Shown: piece by piece, positions 1,085 to 52,078 of the stretch | Layout: each line of letters starts with the position of its first letter | Position numbering within the stretch: the stretch's first letter is position 1 | NCBI GenBank assembly: GCA_001766655.1 | Contig: MJCC01000002.1 | Coordinates: 60,827-124,826, forward strand | Length of the DNA stretch: 64,000 nucleotides | DNA from: Phytomonas francai | Lineage: Eukaryota; Euglenozoa; Kinetoplastea; Trypanosomatida; Trypanosomatidae | Direction of reading: 5' to 3' | Notes under the pieces: generated by a model | What the model saw: the letters and a program-made list of their open reading frames with translations, nothing else | The model's database searches: none | What the model was told of the DNA's origin: nothing | Translations under genes and position numbers: made by a program

Positions 1085-2539
1085 TTACTCTACCATTCCG
1101 TAGATGGTGGATGTGGTGCCGAAAACAATGCCAACCACGCCGCTAATAAGCAGTATATATGTCGCGATATACATGAAGATGCCTTTGGATTTTAGAGACC
1201 AGTTTCCTGCGTACATCACAAAGAAGACTGGGAAGACGAAACCAATGAATCCACCACACAAGGCACCAGCTAGACCGAACATCATGCTAATATTAGGTAC
1301 AAAGAGACCTAATATCAGTGCTGCTGTTGCGAAAGATCCCGCGAAAATCGTGTGCTTCCAGTACGGCATCGTCTCCACATCCCAGTTCATCACCTGGAAC
1401 AGCGCCGTGCGGCACGCCATCATGTTTTGCGAGAAGGAGGCTACGAGCTTGATGACCATGCCGACGAAGCAGACGAAGAAGATGTGGTGCTCGTAGGGGC
1501 TGATGTACAGAATGATGTTGCCCTCCAGCTTCGGGCCGATGTACAAGTACCCAAAGAACCCAATGAGGAAGTACATGGTGAGACAAATGCAGCAACTGAG
1601 CGTGGTGCTAAGCGCCATGCGAGCGACCGTGCGATGATGCATTTCATAGTAAATCTTCAGGCAGTTGCACTGGCAGATGTAGGCGAAAATGAAGATGGCC
1701 AGCGCCACGACGGCCGTATTTCCGCTTCGAGCCAGTACTAGGCCCTCGGGCAGACCGTTCCTCACGCAGCTGTTGATGGAGTAGCCGGTGACGCAGAAGA
1801 CGAAGAAGATTACAAAGAACACCCCTGCGGCGGATACGTAACGCAGGGAGTTGATATACTTGGGTAGCGTCACGGGCAGCATGAGGAAAATCCACACCAA
1901 GCACTGAAGACAGCGCCGGCCACTCGGGCGCTGGAAAAACTCAGGGACGTTGCCGTGTTTCATAAAGACGTTGATAATGTCGCCAACGGCAATGATGAAG
2001 CCGGTCGCGCCACCGAAGCAGAGCAGCCACATGATGACAGCCGCGAAGATGTTGCCTCCACGGCCGAAGAGCCCTAACGCGAGCCTCTCAAAGCTGCGCA
2101 GGCCCGTCTTTTCTGAGGCCTCGACGATCAACACGACCGATAGAACGGTGAACGCCGTGAAGACGAGAAGGTATAGGGTTGCCATGATTATGCCTGCAAC
2201 GCTGAAAGCATAGGGTATAGATAATACGCCTGCCCCGAGAGTTATGCTGGCGAGATTAAGACTGCCGGAGAGGATGCCCCCGTGCGGGATCACGTAGTTG
2301 AAGGCGCGGGAGAAGACGCTTTTTGGCCTTTGGTAATATACTTTATCACATTGTGCGGGCACGCCTTCTCTTCCAAGATTGTTTTCACCATCTAGGGGGA
2401 GACTTTTTTGGTTAGAAAGTGCTGTTAAGTTGTAATCCGGAAATTCAGGTTCGAGGGCGGTGCTGTGCTCGAGATCGACTCTCATGAATTGGTTGTTATG
2501 AGGCTCTCTCGTGTTAGAGTTGTGAATGTTTTGAGACAT
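1085..2539 (-). CDS. AAAP-family amino acid transporter
   Basis: A 484-residue integral membrane protein of the amino acid/auxin permease (AAAP) family, which is expanded in trypanosomatids and imports amino acids, usually at the plasma membrane. Residues 1-75 are a hydrophilic cytosolic N-terminus. A first membrane segment with the family signature LNLASITLGAGVLSIPYAFS starts near residue 94. About ten further hydrophobic segments follow, ending in a final helix and a short C-terminus (SGVVGIVFGTTSTIYGMVE). The length is normal for the family. Substrate specificity cannot be read from sequence. A decayed relative lies upstream at 3239-3620, so this locus was once a tandem array. The start is the first ATG of the frame and precedes a typical hydrophilic tail. 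Confidence 0.93.
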   Translation of the reverse strand: MSQNIHNSNTREPHNNQFMRVDLEHSTALEPEFPDYNLTALSNQKSLPLDGENNLGREGVPAQCDKVYYQRPKSVFSRAFNYVIPHGGILSGSLNLASITLGAGVLSIPYAFSVAGIIMATLYLLVFTAFTVLSVVLIVEASEKTGLRSFERLALGLFGRGGNIFAAVIMWLLCFGGATGFIIAVGDIINVFMKHGNVPEFFQRPSGRRCLQCLVWIFLMLPVTLPKYINSLRYVSAAGVFFVIFFVFCVTGYSINSCVRNGLPEGLVLARSGNTAVVALAIFIFAYICQCNCLKIYYEMHHRTVARMALSTTLSCCICLTMYFLIGFFGYLYIGPKLEGNIILYISPYEHHIFFVCFVGMVIKLVASFSQNMMACRTALFQVMNWDVETMPYWKHTIFAGSFATAALILGLFVPNISMMFGLAGALCGGFIGFVFPVFFVMYAGNWSLKSKGIFMYIATYILLISGVVGIVFGTTSTIYGMVE

Positions 2540-3238
2540 GATTAAATTGGAATAATTTTAAGGTGATATTAATAATTCATACTAGTGGTTTAAAGCCCGA
2601 GAAAGAGAGACGAGATGATCGATTTTGATGAAACTGTACCGCATTGCATGTGTGTGATGTCGAGGAGTATCCTGCCACCCTATTTTAAGTAAATGTGTAC
2701 CTTATCAAATTAGGGGATATTTATATATCCAGAAGTATACTTACTCCCTACAAAATTGCTAACATCAGGTGTCATGTTTTTCATACGTTCCTCTTCTCTA
2801 TATATATTTTGAAATTATCGATTTCAGCACATTTCGTCATTTTTGAACTTGCCTCACAGAAAATGAAAAGCCACAGAATAACGTATTATCGAAGTGCCCA
2901 CATTCATTTATGCCAATCCAAGAGGAAAATCATTGATCCGGAATGTTAATGGGGGGAAAATATAGCAGAATTAAAAAGTGATGCACATTCATAGTGCCGC
3001 TTATTTTGTATTCATTTTTAAAACATTTTGTATATCTGAGAGCTGCGCGCACACACACACACACACACGCACATACCGATAAAAGATCTGAAGATTAGCA
3101 ACAAAAAGTATACAAGAGAAAATGGGAAAATTGATCATCTTGAAACACATTGCAAATGGAAATTTTTTTATTTCTCAATGTTTTAACTTAGAACCTGAGT
3201 CTTTTGATTGCGGAAAAGGCGCCTGGTTAGCAAGTTGT
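2540..3238. other. Spacer with a (CA)n microsatellite
   Basis: AT-rich spacer between the transporter and its pseudogene copy. It contains a CA dinucleotide run at 3049-3069. A plus-strand ORF at 2695-2949 has no recognisable content and is on the non-coding strand. Confidence 0.5.
3049..3069. repeat. (CA)n microsatellite
   Basis: Uninterrupted CA dinucleotide run in a spacer. Confidence 0.9.
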
Positions 3239-35521: not shown

Positions 35522-36491
35522 CGCGCACAGAAGGGAGGAGGAGAAGGGGGGAGGGGGAGGGGACGGATTCGCCGCTCTGGGTTCCCTCGGGGGTTCAATG
35601 GGCGGGGGGAAAACGCGTCGGTGCTACTCGGGACGACGCCTTGGGGAATAGTACGCGAATGAAACGATGCTTCTACCTGTCTTCACTATGAAGATAAATG
35701 GGAAATACGCTTCTTTTCTGTTCTACTTCTTGTTTGACTGACTGTTTTATGTATATATATATTTATATATTTATATATTTATATATATATCTAGACTATT
35801 ATAGTATTGCTTGACAGCTCAACAATATAATGGTAATGGTGGCTAATAATAATGAAACTCAAGGAAGCGTTTTCCTTTTCCTATTGTATACGTATATACG
35901 GTACGGAAATGTATGCTAGAAAAATAAGTTTCCTCGGGAAAATATACCTAATACGGGAAAAAACAGACTCACAAAAAGCAGATTAATATAAGTAACACTA
36001 AGTGACGACCCAATGTAAGCGCGACCTTTTGAAAAATTCCCTTTGCGGTTGTTTCGCTCTTTATTCTTTCCTTGTTGCCGGTTTGTAGAGGGGGTGGAAA
36101 TGAGGTGAGATGCTTTTTTCCCCTGCCCCTAAAGAAACAGGTTTTATGAAGGGAAACGATTTTGTGTGCTACGTATATTTTAATATCTACTTCTTTGTTT
36201 ACTTTACCTTCTTCTTTGGCTATTAAATGCGTGACCTAGTTTAAAATAATTAAAATTAAAATTCTATCGATTCAAACGGGGGAAAATATTCCTTTTCTAA
36301 AAGGGAAAATTTTCCTCCGTTATAAACGAGAAATACGTCTTCTGAGAGAGCTTTCCTACTTTTTAGATGTTTTCAAATTTTTCATAGAGGAGTAAATATG
36401 CCTACCTTGAATAAATATTCCTCCTAACTACGATATACTGATAATTAGGATTAATTGAGAAAGATTATATTGTAGAAAGAAGTATATTTGG
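35522..36491. other. AT-rich spacer
   Basis: Contains TATATTTATATA repeats at 35748-35792. No gene seen. Confidence 0.5.
35748..35792. repeat. (TATATTTA)n-type AT repeat
   Basis: Tandem copies of TTTATATA with variations. Confidence 0.8.
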
Positions 36492-36737
36492 TTAATTTCC
36501 ATCTAGACTAACCGATAGTTGACATATCATCGCATCCACAACCACTCTAAGGAAATGTTCACATTTAGAGATGGATCGAATATCTCCAAAATCCCCCCTA
36601 ATACGATTGCTTAGATACTTCCTAGACACATTCAAACAGAAATTAGATTTCAGCCATGTTGTAGATAACACTTTAATTTGCATATAAAACTCACTTTTAA
36701 ACGTAATAAGAAAATATCCATCATATAATAACATCAT
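36492..36737 (-). CDS. Candidate small protein, doubtful
   Basis: An 81-codon ORF with mixed, protein-like composition (hydrophobic start, then Lys/Arg/Asp/Ser-rich). No family is recognised. In its favour, it lies on the coding strand, and a poly-C tract at 37035-37047 lies about 300 bases upstream with no other gene between. Against it: short, AT-rich, and no homology visible. It may be chance or the remnant of a longer gene. Confidence 0.25.
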   Translation of the reverse strand: MMLLYDGYFLITFKSEFYMQIKVLSTTWLKSNFCLNVSRKYLSNRIRGDFGDIRSISKCEHFLRVVVDAMICQLSVSLDGN

Positions 36738-37218
36738 ATTTTTATTCTTCCCACATGCTATAGTTTTCCATACAGTATTTAAGCACTAAAAATGACAACT
36801 TCAGTGTATTCTCGCTCTTTATGAATATAATCTATTCCACACAATTTATACATGATAGGGATGTAATTCTAAACCATGTACACAATTCTAAGTTTTGCTA
36901 TATGTGAAAATCTACTCCGTTTTTCTTCATTATCGTTCCACGACCGTGAATATATACATAAATATTTATATAGAAATATACAAATATACACCCTGTTTCA
37001 CTTTCTCGATAAATAATTATTCAGAGAGAGGAATGGGGGGGGGGGGGAATCATCCCAGGATTTCTTTTCCTTTTTCAGTCCTTCGATTACACAATAGATA
37101 TAATTTTTTTTACAAGCTCTATTCCTTCCAAAAGTGTATTCTTCTCCCTCTACATTTTGATCAGCATAAAGGATGTTGGAAGGTTGAGAGTATGAGGTTT
37201 GCATAGTTAATGTTTCCA
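36738..37218. other. AT-rich spacer with a poly-C tract
   Basis: Holds a 13-base C-run on the transcribed strand (37035-37047) followed by TTCCTCTCTCT, a strong polypyrimidine tract. Otherwise nothing recognisable. Confidence 0.5.
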
Positions 37219-37641
37219 CTAGCGCATCAGAGAACTGTGAGTTTCAATGTAGCGTACCATCTCTGAACTTTCAAGTCCAGCGGCATCATTAATCTGAACC
37301 CGCATAAACCCTTTAGATATGTATGCAAATGCTTCAGTGCTGGAGCTGTACAACATCCTGGCACGCGGCTTCGCGGTGTCGGAAATCCACAAAATCAAAA
37401 TTAGCTTGCTCTTTAAGGACCTATTAACGAACTCAAAATCAAAAGCTATATAGCAAGGTTTATCTATATCCATTTCCTTAAGAAACTCATCATACGTGCT
37501 CTGACGTCGTCCCACTTTAACGGTCACGATTTTCGCTTCATCGTTTTCAATAGAAAAAACCGCGTAGCGGTAGTTCTTCATGCGGATGCCGTACATGACA
37601 TCGCGAACATGGGAATCAAGAGTGACTCCAGATGCGAGCAT
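37219..37641 (-). CDS. ADF/cofilin
   Basis: A 140-residue actin-depolymerising factor, the usual length for the family (about 140). It starts MLASGVTLDSHVRDV, like the conserved N-terminus whose serine is often a phospho-regulatory site (here S4). It continues through the core YRYAVFSIENDEAKIVTV, the DKPCYIAFDFEF strand, and the LILILWISDTAKPRARMLYSSS segment. This last segment corresponds to the actin-binding long-helix region (WCPDxAxxKxKMxYxSS in other cofilins). The protein severs and depolymerises actin filaments; in Leishmania-type flagellates it affects flagellar assembly and motility. It sits alone in an AT-rich stretch. Confidence 0.92.
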   Translation of the reverse strand: MLASGVTLDSHVRDVMYGIRMKNYRYAVFSIENDEAKIVTVKVGRRQSTYDEFLKEMDIDKPCYIAFDFEFVNRSLKSKLILILWISDTAKPRARMLYSSSTEAFAYISKGFMRVQINDAAGLESSEMVRYIETHSSLMR

Positions 37642-38044
37642 TTGTTCTTAATGGAATCATGACTTCGGTAATTTTGATAAGACGGTAATAGAATTCAGAA
37701 GACTAAATAAGATCCCCTTTGGTGGTTTTCTGCGGGTAAGAATAATCAAAACGATAGTAGTGCAACTTGTTCGCGTATCGGTGATATAGGAATGAATGAT
37801 ATATATATATATATATACAAATTAGTAAAAAAATGGAATAATAATATATACTATTAAAAGACGAATCTAGATTGACGGAAAATTTCCCAAATTCTGTGCC
37901 CTTACTTTTTTTTTTTCAGGTATCGTCCTTCAAAAGTTACACAGACAAGAAAGATAACGGCGCATTTACGGAGCAGTCATGCCGAGCAAGCTGAATTCCA
38001 TTTCGTTTTACTATAAAAGCATATCTTTGTACCTTCTCGCGCTT
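37642..38044. other. Intergenic spacer
   Basis: Includes a (TA)n run at 37799-37818; no gene seen. Confidence 0.5.
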
Positions 38045-44366: not shown

Positions 44367-45569
44367 CTAATTGCGCCGACGGCGGGCGTTTTTCCCTTTA
44401 GATGTCCGATTATTAGGATTATTACTATTCTGGTCATTTGATGTCCTCCCCACAGTGAGCCTTTTTTCCGCCTTGAACTCCTCCTCCTGGAGTAATTCTC
44501 GGGCAAGCGGGGTATACTTGGGCCCATTTCGGGCGTACTTGATCAGGTTCACATGGCTTATACAGTGCCCGCGCGCAAGAAGCTCCGCCAGCACGCGTGC
44601 GATGTTCTGCGCATCATCGATGCCGCTATGCGGGTGCCCCACAAAGTGCATCCCCAGCCGCTTCAGCATATTCGTGAGCTTCGTCTGCCGGGTTTTCAAG
44701 AATCGCTCAAAGCACTGCCGGACGTTGATATAGCGATAACACACCGGCGGGAAGTCGACCCCGTCGCGCAGGACGCTGCACTCGTGCATAAACCGCCGCA
44801 TATCCCACGGCCCGTCGGTCGCGAAGCAGACCATCCGCTCCTCCCCCACGCACGCCCTCGACTCGGCGGTGCGGTCGTCGAGGGAAAAGCGCTTCTGCTC
44901 GGACGCGAGGTTCCGCGAGAGGGCCTGGGCGCCATAACGCGCCCGCCACTCCACGCAGAGCGGGAAGACGACCGTGCGAAGCCAGGCGTTGAAGCGCTCC
45001 ACGACGCGCGGGAGGGGGTCCGCGGCGTCGACCATGGCCTGCGTGATGCCCGTGAGCCCCGTGCAGAAGCTCGTGAGCTTCGCGTTCTTGACGGGGCGGA
45101 CGTAGGCGTGGAACTCGGCCACCCGGCGCAGCGTCGCCGTGTCCAGGACGACGACGGGGAACTCGATAATCTCGTGCGGGTAGCCCACGCTCCCGCTCTC
45201 GCACGTGGCCTCGAAATCGCAGACGAGAATGTGTGAGAAGGGCTGCGGTCGGAGTCGTTTGTACGGCGGCTTGGTGTGGAACTCGAGCGGGGCGGAGGCC
45301 CCGGGCGCCGCCGTGGGGTTGGTTTCCGGTTTCGAAGCCAGACCCTTCGGATGCCTATTGGCGGCGGTAGACGACCTCACTTGTGAAAACGCCTCATTTC
45401 CCTTCATCAGGACGTCAAAACGGCTCCCTGTAAGGAGTTTCGGCGAGGGCCCTGACGCCGCCTCAGAGTTTTCAGACACAGTGCGGGAGAAAGACGAGGA
45501 TCGCTCCGAGCTGGGTATGCTGCATAGTCGCGTTCCTGAGGAAGACTCATTTTCATCCGCGTTATTCAT
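44367..45569 (-). CDS. ERI1-like DEDDh 3'-5' exonuclease, paralog 1
   Basis: A 400-residue RNase of the DEDDh superfamily, ERI1/3'hExo branch. ERI1 enzymes trim 3' ends of histone mRNA, 5.8S rRNA and small RNAs. Catalytic residues are all present: D118 and E120 (ILVCDFEATCE), D256 (FATDGPWDMRRF), and H314 and D319 (GHPHSGIDDAQNIARV). The first 105 residues are Ser/Pro-rich, and no SAP domain is seen. A 30-residue insertion (about 210-245) interrupts the core before the second motif. The tail is very basic (GKNARRRRN), possibly nuclear. The start at 45569 was chosen over an in-frame ATG at 45683 because the extra segment is AT-rich and unlike the protein, and an AG directly precedes this ATG. 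Confidence 0.9.
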   Translation of the reverse strand: MNNADENESSSGTRLCSIPSSERSSSFSRTVSENSEAASGPSPKLLTGSRFDVLMKGNEAFSQVRSSTAANRHPKGLASKPETNPTAAPGASAPLEFHTKPPYKRLRPQPFSHILVCDFEATCESGSVGYPHEIIEFPVVVLDTATLRRVAEFHAYVRPVKNAKLTSFCTGLTGITQAMVDAADPLPRVVERFNAWLRTVVFPLCVEWRARYGAQALSRNLASEQKRFSLDDRTAESRACVGEERMVCFATDGPWDMRRFMHECSVLRDGVDFPPVCYRYINVRQCFERFLKTRQTKLTNMLKRLGMHFVGHPHSGIDDAQNIARVLAELLARGHCISHVNLIKYARNGPKYTPLARELLQEEEFKAEKRLTVGRTSNDQNSNNPNNRTSKGKNARRRRN

Positions 45570-45921
45570 CTGATATTCCGTATTAAGTATGCTATTTATT
45601 ATTGTAACTCCCCAATTAAACGACAGAATATTCTTCCTCTTTCCCTTCACACAAAAAGTGTTCCTTGAATACTTTAATACCAACGTTTATGACACAAAAA
45701 GAAAAGGAATGAAGAAGTCAGAAACCTACTTATTTGCTCCTCCACGAACTGGGCCTAACAAAAGTTTAGAGGGAAATCATGTCTAAATAGTTTTCATTTT
45801 CTAATGTCATTTGTATTTCTGTTTATGGAAGTTTTTCGATTCATCAAGGAATCTTTGTATGCACGACTGCATCGAAAAGGTTGACCATCTAACCACACAG
45901 TAGAAGAATAGGTGCAATCTC

Positions 45922-45957
<36 letters not shown>

Positions 45958-46808
45958 CACTTTTCTGGTAGCATAGAAAAAAAAAAGAAAGCAATAATAT
46001 ACAAGGAATCTCTGACTACGTGAGGACCATCCTTTCGAAAGTGTTGCCCGCATTGTGATTTTGTCCCCTCTATGTACACAAATGCACGCCCTTCATCTTT
46101 CGTTCAAACATCATTACTATAAAAGCAAGGGAAAAAATAGGATCACTATAAAAATACCGAAAGCATTCTCTTTACATATAACGAGCATAGCAAGCCTGGA
46201 ATAGAAAATATCGCAAACAACAAAATTTTAAATAAAAGAATCCTACATATTTAAGCAGAAATGACCATTTTATTTCAACTTGGTCTTCTGAGATTTTTTT
46301 AAACCTTTTCAACACTTATTTCACTTCACACCAATTTTGATTAAAAATGGATGCAGTGCTGCCTCTCAAATAGGATAGAACCGTACCGAGACTATCACCA
46401 TTTTTTGCTGGCTCATTTTTTCCGACCCCATTTTTTAGCGAAGATAAATTTGTCCCTGTATATATTCAACAGAAAAGACCAAAAGAAGGGCTTGCGTGCT
46501 AGGTGTGTATTTCTATCAGAAACGAGTGCCATTGAGCACATCAATTTCCTCTGTTCGCCGCGAACATTCTTTCCTTTTCAATCCTTGTAGCTTCTCTTTA
46601 GTTTAAGCATCTGTTTGATTCCCACACGTACATAAACGCCACCAACTAAATAAAGCGCGGTCTAAAAAAAGAAAGCAATTACAGAAGGACCAACACAAGA
46701 AAAAGCAAACGAAGAAAGCACATGAAGGGGGTTAGGGAGTAGGGGTAGCAGCGAACAAGGACGCAATCCCTTTTTTTTTTTTTATCCTGTGCAGGTTTTG
46801 TCTAGTTT
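45570..46808. other. Long intergenic spacer
   Basis: About 1.2 kb, AT-rich, with a (TA)n run at 45926-45954. Short ORFs on both strands are not credible. Confidence 0.5.
45926..45954. repeat. (TA)n microsatellite
   Basis: TA run in the spacer between exonuclease paralogs 1 and 2. Confidence 0.9.
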
Positions 46809-49800
46809 TTAGCTCACGCTGTCGTCGTTCTCGATGGAGTACGGGGGCTCTGAGTTTGGATGCGCAAAAGAGCTATTACCGTTGCTGCTCGAGGTCGCGG
46901 CGGCTGCAAGGGAGACGGCCGACGGCGGGAGGAAAAGGCAGCCGCCCGGGATCTCCAGAGCACCACCACCGCGGGAGCTGGGTGCACCCGGTGAAAGGCG
47001 GCTTAGCGGGACCTCGCAGAAGGTGCAGCCTCGCTGCAGGAGACCAATCACAATATTCGCCAAATTCCTGGCGTCGTCTAGCCCATTGTGCAGTCTACCT
47101 TTAAAGGGCATGTGGAGGGCGTCCAGCATCGCCTGGATCTTTCCCTGTTGACAGTTGAAAAAGGCCGCGAAGGATTTTTTGATGTCGACCCACTGATAGA
47201 ACATCGCGGGAAAGCGAATCCCCTGCCGCGCGACGCTGTGGTTGTACATGAACTCTCGAAAGTCCGCCGGGCCGTCGGTCGCGAAGATCGCGCGCGCGTT
47301 GGCCGGGATCGTCTGCCGGTACCACCGCTCGAACTGCGCGACCACCACCTCCAGCGTCTCCGCCGCGTCGACGTCGTCCTGGCGGATGCCGGTGAGGGCG
47401 CGGCAGAAGGCGCTGAGCCGCGGTTTGTGCCGGGGCCGCACGAAGCGGTGAAACTCCGCCATCACCCGTTGCAGCCGCGTGTCGACCAGGACGACGGGGA
47501 ACTCGAGGATCTCGTGGAGGTAGCCCGGCGGGGCGTGCTCCTCGCAGGTGGCCTCGAAGTCGAGCACCAGCAGGTAGTCGTACGGGCACTGCGGCAGCAG
47601 CGCGGGCGAGGTGAAGGCGAGGAGGGGGGAGACGGGGTGGCTCCGCGGGGGGCCGGCCCTCCCGGGGGTCAGCAGCCCCCCCCCGCCGTTGCGGTTGCTG
47701 TTGCCGCTGCTGGGTTTGGTGTCGCTGCCGGGGTCGAGGGGGCTCGACTCCGCGTGGCCCTTCGGTAAGGGGGGGGGCCCCACGGCGCTGAAGAGGGGCG
47801 ACGCGACGGAGGTCGTGCTGTAGTAGGCGGCGCCCCCGCGGTGGGGAGGGAGGGCGGCCGAGAAAAAGGCGTGCGGGGCGGCACTCCGCCGCCGCATCAT
47901 GTCCTCCCGGGATTCCAGGCAAAACGTGATCGGCGGCGAGGACACGGAGCTGCTCGACGGGCCGCTCTTGCTCGTCTGGATGGCAGGGCTCGTCGTACTA
48001 TGGGGGTTCTTCGCGCTGCTATGGAGTGCGGCGGGTTTCGACGGCTTTGCGCTCTGCTGCCTTGCGTCTTTCCCCGATTCCTTCTCGGAGAAAGTCGTGG
48101 GGGATGCATCGGATAGGAGACCACTGGACTGATCGGGATAGCCCACGAGAAACCTCTTGGGGTCGCCGCAGCCGTCGTACGGTGCTGTCCCCGGCGGCAT
48201 GCTGAGCTCTGATGGGAAGGAGGCTACCTGCCGCGACGGGGAATAGTACGTGCTGCTCTCCGTCAGGGCGAAGGAGGTGCGAGAATGGAACGCGGGTGCG
48301 TTATGGTTCAGCGGGCTGTGTGTTTTCAATATCCCAGAAGCATCGCCAACCGCATCCGCGGCATCGCCCTGGAGGTCGTTTGCTGCTATGATCCCGTCCA
48401 TGTGGGTTGCACTACGATGTGTGTTTGTATGCACGGCAACTGTGTTTGGTGTGCTCTGGGCGGACGCAGCTACCAGGGAAGTCGCTTCCGAGCCCATCCC
48501 TTTCGCATCTCCATCCTCCTGCGTCGTCCCTCCGTCCAAATCGGCCACCCAAGAGGGTTCTGGGCGCCAATCAACCCCTAAAGCTGAATCCAGCGTCTTG
48601 ACAAGTTCCTCATCATTGAGCACGAGGCGACGGACGGTGGCGAAGTGACTTCGCACGGCATTCCATTGTTCTTCATGGACATCTGTATCAACCTTCGCGC
48701 CGGGCTCGGTTGAGCAGGAGCTCATTGCAGGGCTCGGCGGAGGCGAACGACGACGCTGGCCACCCTTGCCGCATCTCTGCCCCTCAAAAGTGCCTTTGTT
48801 CCCTTCCACCTGACCACTGGAGCCGTTGATAGGTTTCGCAAACAGCTCAAGCGAGGCGCAGCTCAGCGCAATCTCGCGCAGTGCGTTTAGTAATGGGGGA
48901 ATGCTGCTGACGTCGCTCGGGACCAGATCCAACTCATCGTAAGTAAATGGACTTGCACCCACCTGACCGGGGTGCTTTTCGCTTTCCTTTGTCGACACCG
49001 CATCGGTGCAGAAAGAATTGGCATGACTCCCACCACCGCCTTTCTGATTTCTGTAGCGCATGCTATGCCCACTGCTCCCGGTGCTGGTAAGGGAAGAGGG
49101 CGCCGTTGAATTCATGGCGCTGTCGAATGACCGAGACATGCCAGACTTCCGACTAAGATCCGAGGAGAGCACGCCATTCGCGGGGTCAGAATGGGCGCCA
49201 TCTCTGGAGTTGCTTATCGGCTTCGCCGGGGTGGACGCTGTCGGTTTGCCGCCATCCGAGAAGGCGCCGCTTGGCCCCCTGCACGCCCTGTAGGATTCAA
49301 TGCGCGTCGACGTGGGCGGGCTCTGCGTTAGAGACGACATCCACCGCACCGCGATCTGGCGGGCTACACGGCAGCGATCCCGCGTAAGGCGCCGTGCGAT
49401 CCGCAGGGGCGTGCTTCCGCCCGTCGGCTTCGCGCCAACGTGGGAGAGGGGAGGGATTTCCTCGCCGGTGGAATTCACGGGGCGGTCCTGTGTGGGGACG
49501 ACATCCTGCCCATCATTCCCTTCCCTTGTCGTCCGCGTCTTCGGCGTTCCCTGATGAGAAGCCCCCGATGCGCAGCCCCCGCGGGCATCGCCCGCTTTCG
49601 GTTCATTTGCAAACCCATGCGACGACGAGCCGCGCGTTGGGATCGTATTCGATGGAGGCTGCTGTTGGATCCAGTACTTCGGGTAAAACTCATCGGATGA
49701 CTCAAACAGGTTGTTGAGCGATAAATGAGTTATCCGATCCGTGTTACCATCCGCATCGCTGCTAGACCGTATGGTCTCTTTGGTGAGATTTAGAGCTTCA

Positions 49801-49994
49801 GAGATGTCGCCGTTGGCGAGCTTAGCACCTTCAGTAAAGCTGCCATCTCCGTTTTGTGTGTAGGTCTGCAATAACTCGACGTTTGTGTAAGAAGACCCTA
49901 TGCTACAATGTACCTTTGAGTGGTGCTCCATAGAAAGCGCGCCGGTTGTCGTCTTCCGTAATAGTGATTCTTGAATGGAGGATTCAATATCCAT
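46809..49994 (-). CDS. ERI1-like DEDDh 3'-5' exonuclease, paralog 2, with a giant N-terminal extension
   Basis: A 1061-residue protein. The exonuclease core occupies only about residues 800-1005. Catalytic residues: D812 and E814 (LLVLDFEATCEE), D911 (FATDGPADFREF), and H969 and D974 (RLHNGLDDARNLANI). The tryptophan usual in the second motif (GxWD) is alanine here. The first 790 residues are Ser/Pro/Gly/Thr-rich, apparently disordered, and not alignable to the other paralogs. They could carry localisation or partner-binding motifs. The C-terminal 50 residues are again low complexity. The core is adjacent in family and in the genome to paralogs 1 and 3, indicating local duplication. Confidence 0.88.
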   Translation of the reverse strand: MDIESSIQESLLRKTTTGALSMEHHSKVHCSIGSSYTNVELLQTYTQNGDGSFTEGAKLANGDISEALNLTKETIRSSSDADGNTDRITHLSLNNLFESSDEFYPKYWIQQQPPSNTIPTRGSSSHGFANEPKAGDARGGCASGASHQGTPKTRTTREGNDGQDVVPTQDRPVNSTGEEIPPLSHVGAKPTGGSTPLRIARRLTRDRCRVARQIAVRWMSSLTQSPPTSTRIESYRACRGPSGAFSDGGKPTASTPAKPISNSRDGAHSDPANGVLSSDLSRKSGMSRSFDSAMNSTAPSSLTSTGSSGHSMRYRNQKGGGGSHANSFCTDAVSTKESEKHPGQVGASPFTYDELDLVPSDVSSIPPLLNALREIALSCASLELFAKPINGSSGQVEGNKGTFEGQRCGKGGQRRRSPPPSPAMSSCSTEPGAKVDTDVHEEQWNAVRSHFATVRRLVLNDEELVKTLDSALGVDWRPEPSWVADLDGGTTQEDGDAKGMGSEATSLVAASAQSTPNTVAVHTNTHRSATHMDGIIAANDLQGDAADAVGDASGILKTHSPLNHNAPAFHSRTSFALTESSTYYSPSRQVASFPSELSMPPGTAPYDGCGDPKRFLVGYPDQSSGLLSDASPTTFSEKESGKDARQQSAKPSKPAALHSSAKNPHSTTSPAIQTSKSGPSSSSVSSPPITFCLESREDMMRRRSAAPHAFFSAALPPHRGGAAYYSTTSVASPLFSAVGPPPLPKGHAESSPLDPGSDTKPSSGNSNRNGGGGLLTPGRAGPPRSHPVSPLLAFTSPALLPQCPYDYLLVLDFEATCEEHAPPGYLHEILEFPVVLVDTRLQRVMAEFHRFVRPRHKPRLSAFCRALTGIRQDDVDAAETLEVVVAQFERWYRQTIPANARAIFATDGPADFREFMYNHSVARQGIRFPAMFYQWVDIKKSFAAFFNCQQGKIQAMLDALHMPFKGRLHNGLDDARNLANIVIGLLQRGCTFCEVPLSRLSPGAPSSRGGGALEIPGGCLFLPPSAVSLAAAATSSSNGNSSFAHPNSEPPYSIENDDSVS

Positions 49995-50896
49995 GTTGGA
50001 ATTAAAAAATGTCGAAGTGCTCTTTTCCTTCTGCCCAATTTGTTTCCCTTATCGGAATGACAGCCGATATTCAAGAGGCTACGATCTCGAACGAACCCCA
50101 AAAGAGTAAAATAAATGCACTGAAAATTACTCTAAATACCCACTCAATTCACAGGGCAAAGAGGATAGGGTGCTCACTCAGATAGTTTGAAGAAGGATAA
50201 AGCTAAAAGTAAATATACCCTTCTGTGCGCTTTTTTTAAGAAGTTTTGACTCACGCTAAAGGTACCCTTTTATTTTCGAAATCACCAAACGATAAGTAAA
50301 TAGATAAAAACAAAAACAAACACCTTGGAAGGGGGGGGGGGGAATAGGGTTCATTATACCTCCATAATCCCGAAGGAGATGAAAAATGAACAGGTGAAAC
50401 CAACAACAACAAAAGGTATGATTATGGGGGTATTTTAGCAGAAATGTGTCACACCGTGTTACTTCATAGCATAAAAAAGAAACTAAAATTAAGTTCATTT
50501 TCATAATCATGATGAACAACAGAGAAAAAGTTTCCACTATGTGTTGGGGTTCAAAGATAATTATAAGTTGGATACCAACACCCTTCTTTCATTTTGAAAC
50601 CAACACATGTTTTTAATATATTTTAGTTATTATTTACCCGTTTAGGTGCTCGAAGCGGAGTATTAAGAACTCGAAGCGGGATACTATCGATTTGTTCCAA
50701 GTACACAAAAAATGTCGTCTAGCTACCTACACGCACAGGGAAGTAAAAATACCCCTAACACCACACAGTAATAAATGGATTCCAAACGCACCGAAACGAA
50801 TCCAAATAATTTTGCACGTGCACGCAGATGGAATTGTCGTTTTATACTTCACTTTTCCTTCCGAGATAATCTCGGCAAAGAAGGAAGAAAATGAGA
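49995..50896. other. Intergenic spacer with a poly-C tract
   Basis: A 12-base C-run on the transcribed strand at 50331-50342 lies about 340 bases upstream of paralog 2. A plus-strand ORF at 50692-50940 is on the silent strand and not recognised. Confidence 0.5.
50331..50342 (-). promoter_or_regulatory. Poly-C polypyrimidine tract upstream of exonuclease paralog 2
   Basis: Twelve C in a row on the transcribed strand, a candidate polypyrimidine tract for trans-splicing of the downstream mRNA. The acceptor AG was not determined. Confidence 0.4.
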
Positions 50897-52078
50897 TCAA
50901 TTGGAAATACCGTGTCTATGTGCGGGAAAATACCATCTAAGTACTAGAATCTGAAGACCAAAAAGAAATACTATACTACACACTACCTTAATCCACCACC
51001 ACCACCACCGTTGTGAGGCACGCATTGCGCGCCGGTGGAGCAGAACAGCTTTATTGTTCTTGAAAGAGCTCGGGTGCTTCGCACGGTATTCCATGATTTC
51101 TGCGCGGTGTGTCTTTCCAAAGGTAAAGTAGAGCTGTCCAAAGCACTTTTTCGCAATATCATCCACAACATCGCGGTCGACTTGACCACTCCCTTCTTGG
51201 CGCCTGTAGAGTGGGTATCCCTCGAGGTGGTAATGAAGCTTGTCCTCCAAGGGAAGAGCTACGAGAAAGTCAAATACACACCCCGCCTTCATCATCGCAA
51301 TGGCCAGCCGTGCGATATTGTAGGCGTCGTCAAAACCGCAGTGCGGACGCCCTTCAAACCTCAGTCCCATACGGGACAGCATTGCGTCTAGTTTCATGGG
51401 GGTCCCATGATTAAAGAACCTAGAAAAGGTAGTACGAATGTCCAGGTACTCAAAAAAAATACTAGGGAGACTGACATGATCACGCAGCACGTGGTACTCG
51501 TAGAAGAACTTCTTGAAATCCCACGGGCCATCCGCGGCGAAGATCACCTTCGCCCCTCGCGGGATCGTCGCCAGGTACCACTTCTCGAAGCGTTTAATTG
51601 CCTCCGTGATGTCCGGTGCGCCGTCGACGTCCTCCTGGCGGATACCCGTCAGATTCTTGCAAAACTCTGTCAGGATGGGGTTCCGCCATGGCTTGATATA
51701 GGTCTGGAAGGAGCGTTTTTTGTCGACAAGCCCACGCCGAACGTCAATGAGCACCGCGGGCAGTTCAATCACCTCATGCGGGTAGCTCTGGTGGTTATCC
51801 TCGCAGGTCGCCTCCACATCGACGACGATGAGGTAGTCAAACAACTGCTGGTCAAAGGGGTCCTCGCCGTCGAAGGTGTGCTGTGCGGGGCGGTTCTGAC
51901 GTTCGTTGCCGCGCGAGGACAGGTACGACGGATCGCGGTCTTTTCCACTACGCGGATGTTTGCTGGCCCCTTTGGAGTGCCCGAGGTAGCCATTGCGTGA
52001 TTTATTCGTGAAAATGTTCGCACGCTTTTCTTTATTGGCGGCTTTTTGGGCCTTTCCTCTTTTGTTATGACTGGACAT
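50897..52078 (-). CDS. ERI1-like DEDDh 3'-5' exonuclease, paralog 3, membrane-anchored
   Basis: A 393-residue protein. Catalytic residues: D87 and E89 (LIVVDVEATCED), D187 (FAADGPWDFKKF), and H246 and D251 (RPHCGFDDAYNIARL). The first 70 residues are basic and hydrophilic. After the nuclease core (about 80-280) and an 80-residue linker, the C-terminus has five Trp in a row (358-362) and then one hydrophobic helix (IKVVCSIVFLFGLQILVLRWYF, about 363-384) ending in a short basic tail. This is a tail-anchor layout that would place the nuclease on the cytosolic face of an organelle or the ER. The Trp run is encoded by a CCA trinucleotide repeat (plus strand, 50995-51009). Confidence 0.9.
   Translation of the reverse strand: MSSHNKRGKAQKAANKEKRANIFTNKSRNGYLGHSKGASKHPRSGKDRDPSYLSSRGNERQNRPAQHTFDGEDPFDQQLFDYLIVVDVEATCEDNHQSYPHEVIELPAVLIDVRRGLVDKKRSFQTYIKPWRNPILTEFCKNLTGIRQEDVDGAPDITEAIKRFEKWYLATIPRGAKVIFAADGPWDFKKFFYEYHVLRDHVSLPSIFFEYLDIRTTFSRFFNHGTPMKLDAMLSRMGLRFEGRPHCGFDDAYNIARLAIAMMKAGCVFDFLVALPLEDKLHYHLEGYPLYRRQEGSGQVDRDVVDDIAKKCFGQLYFTFGKTHRAEIMEYRAKHPSSFKNNKAVLLHRRAMRASQRWWWWWIKVVCSIVFLFGLQILVLRWYFPAHRHGISN
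50995..51009. repeat. (CCA)n repeat encoding a Trp run
   Basis: Five CCA units (TGG on the coding strand) inside exonuclease paralog 3, immediately before its hydrophobic anchor. Confidence 0.85.

What the first reader, a model, noticed from the sequence alone, without database searches (positions are those of the whole stretch)
44367..52078. Cluster of three ERI1-like DEDDh exonuclease paralogs
Three consecutive minus-strand genes (44367-45569, 46809-49994, 50897-52078) encode ERI1/3'hExo-type nucleases with all five catalytic residues intact. Only the core is shared; N- and C-terminal regions differ completely. This suggests local duplication followed by specialisation to different cellular sites or RNA substrates. 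ERI1 enzymes process 3' ends of histone mRNA, 5.8S rRNA and small RNAs, so a diversified set in a kinetoplastid could define a dedicated RNA 3'-trimming system.
Basis: partly seen in the sequence, partly recalled or inferred. Interest (0 to 1): 0.75.

Follow-up and report, generated by a model that had tools for sequence, protein, structure and literature searches.

The report
Three ERI1-like nucleases with different addresses
A plant-parasite relative of trypanosomes carries three neighbouring genes for likely RNA-trimming enzymes that share one cutting core but carry different attachments (a membrane anchor, a likely docking site for poly(A)-binding protein, and an insert in the core), and the set is old and widely kept in this parasite family.

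Summary
In detail: three intact minus-strand ORFs, each with one RNase_T domain, closest solved relative human ERI1, catalytic DEDDh residues present. The genome looks like Phytomonas. The array is not local: orthologues of each gene occur in Leishmania, Leptomonas, Porcisia, Novymonas and Trypanosoma, with neighbouring locus tags or equal contig lengths. In a tree the three types fall in one group (100/96) whose named rows are kinetoplastid, apart from animal and fungal ERI1; the duplication is ancient (cores 40-45% identical). New is that each type has its own conserved module. Gene 3: a C-terminal transmembrane stretch in 47 of 47 rows. Gene 2: a PAM2-like poly(A)-binding-protein docking motif in 31 of 38 rows (2.05 expected by shuffling), in disorder. 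Gene 1: an insert in the nuclease domain in 39 of 39 rows measured. Best reading: one 3'-5' exonuclease core sent to three addresses (membrane, PABP-bound mRNA, perhaps nucleus). Addresses and substrates are inferred, not shown. Ten paper searches listed no study of the set; a published kinetoplastid 3'-end polishing nuclease, SNIP, might be one of them and could not be checked.

The parts
50897..52078 (-). gene 3: ERI1-like DEDDh exonuclease with C-terminal membrane anchor, 393 aa
51254..51850 (-). gene 3 exonuclease core (residues 77-275)
   Evidence: HMM envelope; pLDDT mostly over 90; Foldseek best hits human ERI1
51077..51253 (-). gene 3-specific conserved, ordered extension (residues 276-334)
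   Evidence: invariant G298 and G314 and several near-invariant residues in 35 rows; pLDDT blocks 88-98
50939..50992 (-). gene 3 predicted transmembrane anchor (best 18-residue window, residues 363-380)
   Evidence: Kyte-Doolittle mean 2.50, 13 residues after it; a stretch over threshold in 47 of 47 gene 3 rows
52007..52063 (-). gene 3 basic N-terminal helix (residues 6-24), conserved in most rows
   Evidence: consensus HNKRGKA..A..KERRA (several shorter rows lack it); helix in model
46809..49994 (-). gene 2: ERI1-like exonuclease with long, largely disordered N-terminal part, 1061 aa
47004..47594 (-). gene 2 exonuclease core (residues 801-997)
   Evidence: mean column conservation 0.79 against 0.30 for residues 1-790 (26 rows)
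48270..48320 (-). gene 2 PAM2-like motif, HSPLNHNAPAFHSRTSF (residues 559-575)
   Evidence: pLDDT blocks 30-34 (disordered)
47856..47942 (-). gene 2 conserved stretch around FCLESREDMMRRRSAAPHAFF (residues 685-713), partner unknown
   Evidence: most conserved island found before the core, 0.88; helix 696-709
48564..49385 (-). gene 2 conserved helical segments of unknown fold (within residues 204-477, with disordered loops)
   Evidence: islands; pLDDT blocks mostly 82-97 in the helices; no Pfam match there
44367..45569 (-). gene 1: ERI1-like exonuclease with an insert in the core and a basic C-terminal tail, 400 aa
44547..45251 (-). gene 1 exonuclease core including insert (residues 107-341)
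44832..44975 (-). gene 1 insert inside the core (about residues 199-246)
   Evidence: phmmer splits here; motif I to motif II spacing 133 against 94-95 in genes 2 and 3

Best explanation
The three genes are an ancient kinetoplastid set of ERI1-type DEDDh 3'-5' exonucleases that arose by tandem duplication and kept one catalytic core while each gained a different address. Gene 3 is a tail-anchored protein: its core faces the cytosol on a membrane (endoplasmic reticulum or mitochondrial outer membrane), where it would trim RNA 3' ends brought there, for example on membrane-bound ribosomes. Gene 2 carries a PAM2-like motif in a disordered region, which would dock on the MLLE domain of poly(A)-binding protein and bring the nuclease to the 3' end of mRNA. 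Gene 1 is soluble, with an insert in the core that may change substrate choice, and sometimes a basic tail; it would act on small or ribosomal RNA 3' ends, perhaps in the nucleus. Shown here: ORFs, catalytic residues, grouping in the tree, conservation of the modules, presence of MLLE domains in the genome. Inferred: activity, membrane, PABP binding, nuclear site, all substrates.
For: Catalytic residues intact. One group holding three types. Counts with every core row assigned to a type by distance in a tree: C-terminal hydrophobic stretch in 47 of 47 gene 3 rows, 1 of 38 gene 2, 1 of 40 gene 1, 2 of 79 other rows; PAM2-like motif outside the core in 31 of 38 gene 2 rows (2.05 expected from shuffles), 1 of 47 gene 3 (0.92), 0 of 40 gene 1 (0.42), 3 of 79 other rows (0.94). 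First counts on lists taken from the hit tables gave 46 of 47 and 31 of 35, 1.77 expected. The anchor helix and an ordered extension before it are modelled with good confidence. The motif is an island of conservation. The same pattern finds MNPNADEFVP in an eIF4E-family gene of this genome, like the MNPNATEFMP of Leishmania eIF4E4 whose complex with PABP1 was solved (PMC6379680, passages). The genome has three MLLE-domain matches. Gene 1: spacing of catalytic motifs I and II is 128-223 in 32 of 32 rows measured, against 94 in 34 of 35 gene 2 rows and 95 in 42 of 45 gene 3 rows; with a looser pattern 39 of 39 measured gene 1 rows are at 125 or more.
Against: Seven of 38 gene 2 rows lack the motif (P0103, P0105, P0113, P0200, P0202, P0204, P0206; P0206 has a looser form), among them the deepest rows, so it may not be ancestral. 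One of them, P0113, has a C-terminal hydrophobic stretch instead. The base of the gene 2 type is weakly supported (88/79; 0.51). I looked for the motif after seeing the sequences, and the rows are related, so 31 are not independent cases. The loose pattern also occurs in 3 of the other 24 window ORFs, and in this genome the final proline of PAM2 is missing. NLS-like tails occur in only 14 of 34 gene 1 rows, so the nuclear site is weak. Which membrane gene 3 sits in cannot be told. No activity or binding data exist here.
Confidence: 0.6

Rival explanations
1. Ordinary ERI1-family housekeeping enzymes: redundant or substrate-specialised nucleases (5.8S rRNA, snRNA, spliced-leader RNA 3' polishing), in which the extra modules matter little. 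One of them, most likely gene 1, would be the already published SL RNA polishing nuclease SNIP.
For: ERI1 enzymes trim 5.8S and other small RNAs elsewhere (established knowledge, recalled). A kinetoplastid 3'-5' exonuclease SNIP that polishes SL RNA and has other small RNA substrates is in print (Zeiner et al. 2004; I saw only the title, in the reference list of PMC6597758). Gene 1 rows lack a C-terminal membrane stretch (39 of 40) and some have basic tails.
Against: Modules kept in 47 of 47 gene 3 rows and 31 of 38 gene 2 rows are hard to call unimportant. Whether SNIP is any of the three could not be tested: the paper is not held, and the only held paper found to cite it gives the title alone.
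Confidence: 0.3
2. Some of the three act on DNA or as RNA interference suppressors (ERI-1 role in worms, CRN-4-like role) rather than RNA maturation.
For: CRN-4 (cell death-related nuclease 4) is among the solved relatives (E 6.3e-21 to 2.5e-19).
Against: Human ERI1 scores far better. RNAi is thought to be absent from many Leishmania species that have the array (recalled, not tested).
Confidence: 0.1

Closest known systems
ERI1 / 3'hExo (animals, fungi)
   Same: DEDDh nuclease core, catalytic residues, 35-42% identical to human ERI1, best sequence matches and, for gene 3, best fold matches
   Different: No SAP domain (the SAP model does match an animal ERI1 used as control, P0104); separate group in the tree; a membrane anchor or PAM2-like motif in an ERI1 protein is not known to me (recalled, not searched beyond the ten searches)
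ERI3 and the fourth ERI-type gene of this genome (L004)
   Same: Same superfamily; the three cores are 30-37% identical to human ERI3
   Different: L004 stands among ERI3-like rows, not in the array group, shares with human ERI3 a C in place of one of the two D of motif II and is fused to a Tpt1/KptA domain
PAN2-PAN3 and other PABP-recruited deadenylases
   Same: A DEDD nuclease brought to poly(A) through a PAM2 motif (that of PAN3; recalled) is what gene 2 would work like
   Different: Gene 2 would carry nuclease and PAM2-like motif in one chain, and its core is ERI1-type; a PAN2-like gene of this genome is separate (L005, named by eye from its translation)
SNIP, kinetoplastid 3'-5' exonuclease (Zeiner et al. 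2004)
   Same: Possible substrates of gene 1
   Different: Sequence not available to me; identity untested

Membership tests
ERI1 / 3'hExo-type DEDDh exonucleases | RNase_T domain with D, E, D, H, D active site | tested here: met
   (three of three genes)
ERI1 / 3'hExo-type DEDDh exonucleases | Closest solved relatives are ERI1 | tested here: met
   by sequence, three of three genes; by fold for gene 3 only
ERI1 / 3'hExo-type DEDDh exonucleases | SAP domain before the core (animal ERI1) | tested here: not met
   no SAP match in 3 of 3 window proteins; so ERI1-like, not animal-type ERI1
ERI1 / 3'hExo-type DEDDh exonucleases | Branching with animal ERI1 | tested here: not met
   separate group; tree with human ERI1 inside the set rejected, p-AU 0.003
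ERI1 / 3'hExo-type DEDDh exonucleases | 3'-5' exoribonuclease activity | not testable with these tools
   needs purified protein
Tail-anchored membrane proteins (gene 3) | Hydrophobic stretch close to the C-terminus | tested here: met
   47 of 47 rows; 1 to 45 residues after the best window in the 46 rows printed
Tail-anchored membrane proteins (gene 3) | No N-terminal signal sequence | not tested
   no predictor was run
Tail-anchored membrane proteins (gene 3) | Membrane location | not testable with these tools
   needs tagging
PAM2 proteins (gene 2) | Conserved motif of PAM2 type in a disordered region | tested here: met
   31 of 38 rows, island in alignment, low pLDDT; last proline absent in this genome
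PAM2 proteins (gene 2) | Binding to an MLLE domain | not testable with these tools
   three MLLE matches exist in the genome
SNIP | Sequence identity with one of the three | not testable with these tools
   paper not held

The most novel reading that the evidence does not exclude
Kinetoplastids run a three-address 3'-end trimming system built on one ERI1-type core: a PABP-docked ERI1 enzyme that trims poly(A) or the 3' end of mRNA (a deadenylase class not described before, as far as my searches show), a tail-anchored ERI1 enzyme on a membrane, and a soluble one with an altered core, kept together as one array since before trypanosomatids split from bodonids.
Probability: 0.28. Interest if true: 0.75.

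Novelty: new variant of a known kind. Interest (0 to 1): 0.5.

Why it matters
Trypanosomatids control genes mostly after transcription, and a 2019 review says it is unknown how poly(A) tail lengths are set or how deadenylases are targeted to individual mRNAs (PMC6597758, passages; the term ERI1 does not occur in it). A PABP-docking ERI1 nuclease would be a new, directly testable candidate, and a membrane-anchored ERI1 would point to 3'-end trimming at a membrane. The array gives three natural versions of one enzyme that differ mainly outside the catalytic core.

Tried and rejected
Recent local duplication: rejected, since the cores are only 39.7-44.6% identical to each other and orthologues of each type are found across the family. 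Inactive copy: no sign of it, the catalytic residues are kept. The fourth ERI-type gene as part of the set: not supported by the tree; the AU test of that grouping did not finish. Finding T. brucei gene numbers through the neighbouring XPB gene (its number recalled): the searches gave only other genes (Tb927.3.5050 is ribosomal protein L4; Tb927.3.5070 has no recognised domain; one search calls it a likely contaminant), so no T. brucei number is claimed. Viral relatives of gene 3: none found. NCBIfam: only bacterial DnaQ-type models far under their cut-offs. Papers: ten searches; no title or abstract start listed was a study of these genes. T. brucei and T. vivax gene 2 were not among the hits, which lists only proteins of 0.55 to 1.75 times the query length; their absence is not shown. 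One search listed 120 of 160 hits, so the gene 1 rows are incomplete.
Full report
Observation. The three ORFs stand at the stated coordinates on the minus strand without stops. Each has one RNase_T domain, and human ERI1 is the closest solved relative of all three. The active-site residues agree with human ERI1 in all three. Pairwise core identity is 44.6% (genes 1-2), 39.7% (1-3) and 42.6% (2-3); to human ERI1 it is 41.7, 39.0 and 35.3% for genes 1, 2 and 3.

Organism. Gene 3 is 80% identical to a Phytomonas sp. EM1 protein and 78% to one of Phytomonas sp. Hart1; gene 1 is 66% identical to EM1 and residues 780-1061 of gene 2 are 81% identical to both. I infer a Phytomonas species. The genome held has 17.4 Mb in 37 contigs.

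How widespread. Orthologues of each type come from Leishmania, Leptomonas, Porcisia, Novymonas and Trypanosoma (for Porcisia only genes 1 and 3 were listed). Eight pairs of locus tags printed there are next to each other or two numbers apart: Leptomonas pyrrhocoris ABB37_04611 (gene 1) and 04612 (gene 2); Leishmania sp. GH5_03620 (1) and 03621 (2); L. martiniquensis LSCM1_04341 (1) and 04342 (2); Leptomonas seymouri ABL78_2145 (1) and 2147 (3); Porcisia JKF63_00621 (3) and 00623 (1); T. conorhini Tco025E_03710 (2) and 03711 (3); T. grayi DQ04_00261180 (2) and 00261190 (3; numbered by tens); T. cruzi TCSYLVIO_010684 (3) and 010686 (1). Names are cut in the listing, so no species shows all three tags, but all eight pairs fit the order gene 3, gene 2, gene 1 of the window. 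For five organisms the three types list a longest contig of equal length: Phytomonas EM1 (1675870), Novymonas (193656), L. pyrrhocoris (1053738), T. conorhini (32002) and T. grayi (51607). Equal lengths hint at linkage in unnamed rows too: P0046 (gene 3 type) and P0206 (gene 2 type) both list 34380, P0087 (gene 1) and P0200 (gene 2) both 6876. Equal length is a hint, not proof of the same contig.

Tree. Core domains of the listed hits, four proteins of this genome and three human sequences were aligned (231 rows). In a quick tree of 109 rows the three types fall in one 41-row group (SH-aLRT 98). In a careful tree of 76 rows that group has 100/96 (bootstrap/SH-aLRT); inside it gene 1 type has 15 rows (91/98), gene 2 type 11 rows (88/79; 10 of them at 100/88), gene 3 type 9 rows (90/93), and six further unnamed rows are unresolved. 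The named rows in the group are kinetoplastid; others carry no name. Its neighbours are eukprot rows that I take, from their labels and by recall, for diplonemids. Holding exactly the 35 rows of the three types together costs 1.05 log units, p-AU 0.468; adding human ERI1 is rejected (p-AU 0.003), and so is grouping types 2 and 3 with animal ERI1 (p-AU 0.006). The groups were named after seeing the tree, which weakens these tests. The fourth ERI-type gene (L004) stands among ERI3-like rows.

Counts. For a fair count I assigned all rows of the core alignment to a type by distance to the rows of the careful tree in a FastTree tree: 40 gene 1 rows, 38 gene 2, 47 gene 3, 7 unresolved, 79 other. In that tree the gene 3 type is a clean clade (support 0.965); the clades around types 1 and 2 take in three and one of the unresolved rows, and the gene 2 base has support 0.51.

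Gene 3. A Kyte-Doolittle scan behind the core (18-residue window, threshold 1.6) is passed by 47 of 47 gene 3 rows, 1 of 40 gene 1 (P0207), 1 of 38 gene 2 (P0113), 0 of 7 unresolved and 2 of 79 other rows. The first count, on a list, was 46 of 47, the miss being P0045, which is another type. AlphaFold2 on 35 sequences gives mean pLDDT 85.1, a confident core, an ordered extension with conserved residues and a C-terminal helix 342-392 that includes the anchor. Foldseek finds ERI1, ERI2, ERI3 and CRN-4 first.

Gene 2. AlphaFold2 gives 712 of 1061 residues under pLDDT 50. Helices within residues 204-238, 362-383 and 434-472 are mostly confident and lie in conserved islands but have no Pfam match. 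The pattern [LM][NSD]..A..[FY] outside the core is found in 31 of 38 gene 2 rows, 2.05 expected from shuffles of each row's own letters; gene 3 has 1 of 47 (0.92), gene 1 0 of 40 (0.42), other rows 3 of 79 (0.94) (first count 31 of 35, 1.77 expected). The seven rows without it include the deepest ones. The motif is an island of conservation (0.64 against a mean of 0.30 for residues 1-790, 26 rows). Phytomonas EM1 reads MNPHATSFHS there; Leishmania and Leptomonas rows have another match such as LSEAAAPYQP. As positive control the pattern finds MNPNADEFVP and others in 2 of 6 eIF4E-family genes of this genome, like the Leishmania eIF4E4 motif MNPNATEFMP shown to bind PABP1 (PMC6379680, passages). 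As negative control it also occurs in 3 of 24 other window ORFs, so the pattern alone is weak and the case rests on conservation. Three MLLE matches exist in the genome.

Gene 1. The distance between catalytic motifs I and II is 128-223 residues in 32 of 32 rows measured (34 given), against 94 in 34 of 35 and 95 in 42 of 45 measured rows (46 given) of the other two types. With a looser pattern it is 125 or more in 39 of 39 measured gene 1 rows of 40, and in 1 of 38 gene 2 and 1 of 46 measured gene 3 rows (the looser pattern can start too early, so its upper values are unsure). The insert lies at about residues 199-246 here. An NLS-like basic tail is seen in 14 of 34 rows.

Literature. A 2019 review of trypanosomatid gene expression names CAF1, PAN2 and three PARNs in its section on poly(A) removal, says it is unknown how tail lengths are set, and holds no occurrence of ERI1 (PMC6597758, passages). 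Its reference list cites SNIP, a 3'-5' exonuclease that polishes SL RNA; I could not see that paper, so whether SNIP is one of these genes is open. The ten searches named in Tried and rejected listed no study of the array.

Verdict. Real, ancient and conserved; membership in the ERI1-like family is sound, but not in animal-type ERI1. New here are the distinct conserved modules, which turn the idea of specialisation into testable addresses.

Noticed in passing
L004 (G000:C37:178418-181969), locus bases 1429-3123: A fourth ERI-type (ERI3-like) exonuclease domain fused to a C-terminal Tpt1/KptA RNA 2'-phosphotransferase domain (E 2e-52); the only PF01885 match found in the genome; the same fusion in Leptomonas pyrrhocoris P0211.
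   Followed up: partly
window 47856-47942 (-): A 29-residue stretch of gene 2 holding FCLESREDMMRRRSAAPHAFF is the most conserved island found before the core (0.88) and partly a predicted short helix in disorder: a likely binding motif for an unknown partner.
   Followed up: no
P0045, P0075, P0077, P0089, P0090, P0102, P0212: Proteins with two or three ERI1-type domains in tandem; some core rows in the alignment lack catalytic residues.
   Followed up: no
P0113: An unnamed deep row of the gene 2 type that has a C-terminal hydrophobic stretch and no PAM2-like motif, so the modules may have been swapped or mis-assigned near the base.
   Followed up: no
window 37219-37641 (-): A 140-aa ORF in the AT-rich stretch 36001-38000 (GC 0.35) that looks by eye like cofilin/ADF; not searched.
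   Followed up: no
L019 and L020 (eIF4E-family genes of the same genome): The long open frame of each holds two PAM2-like matches.
   Followed up: partly
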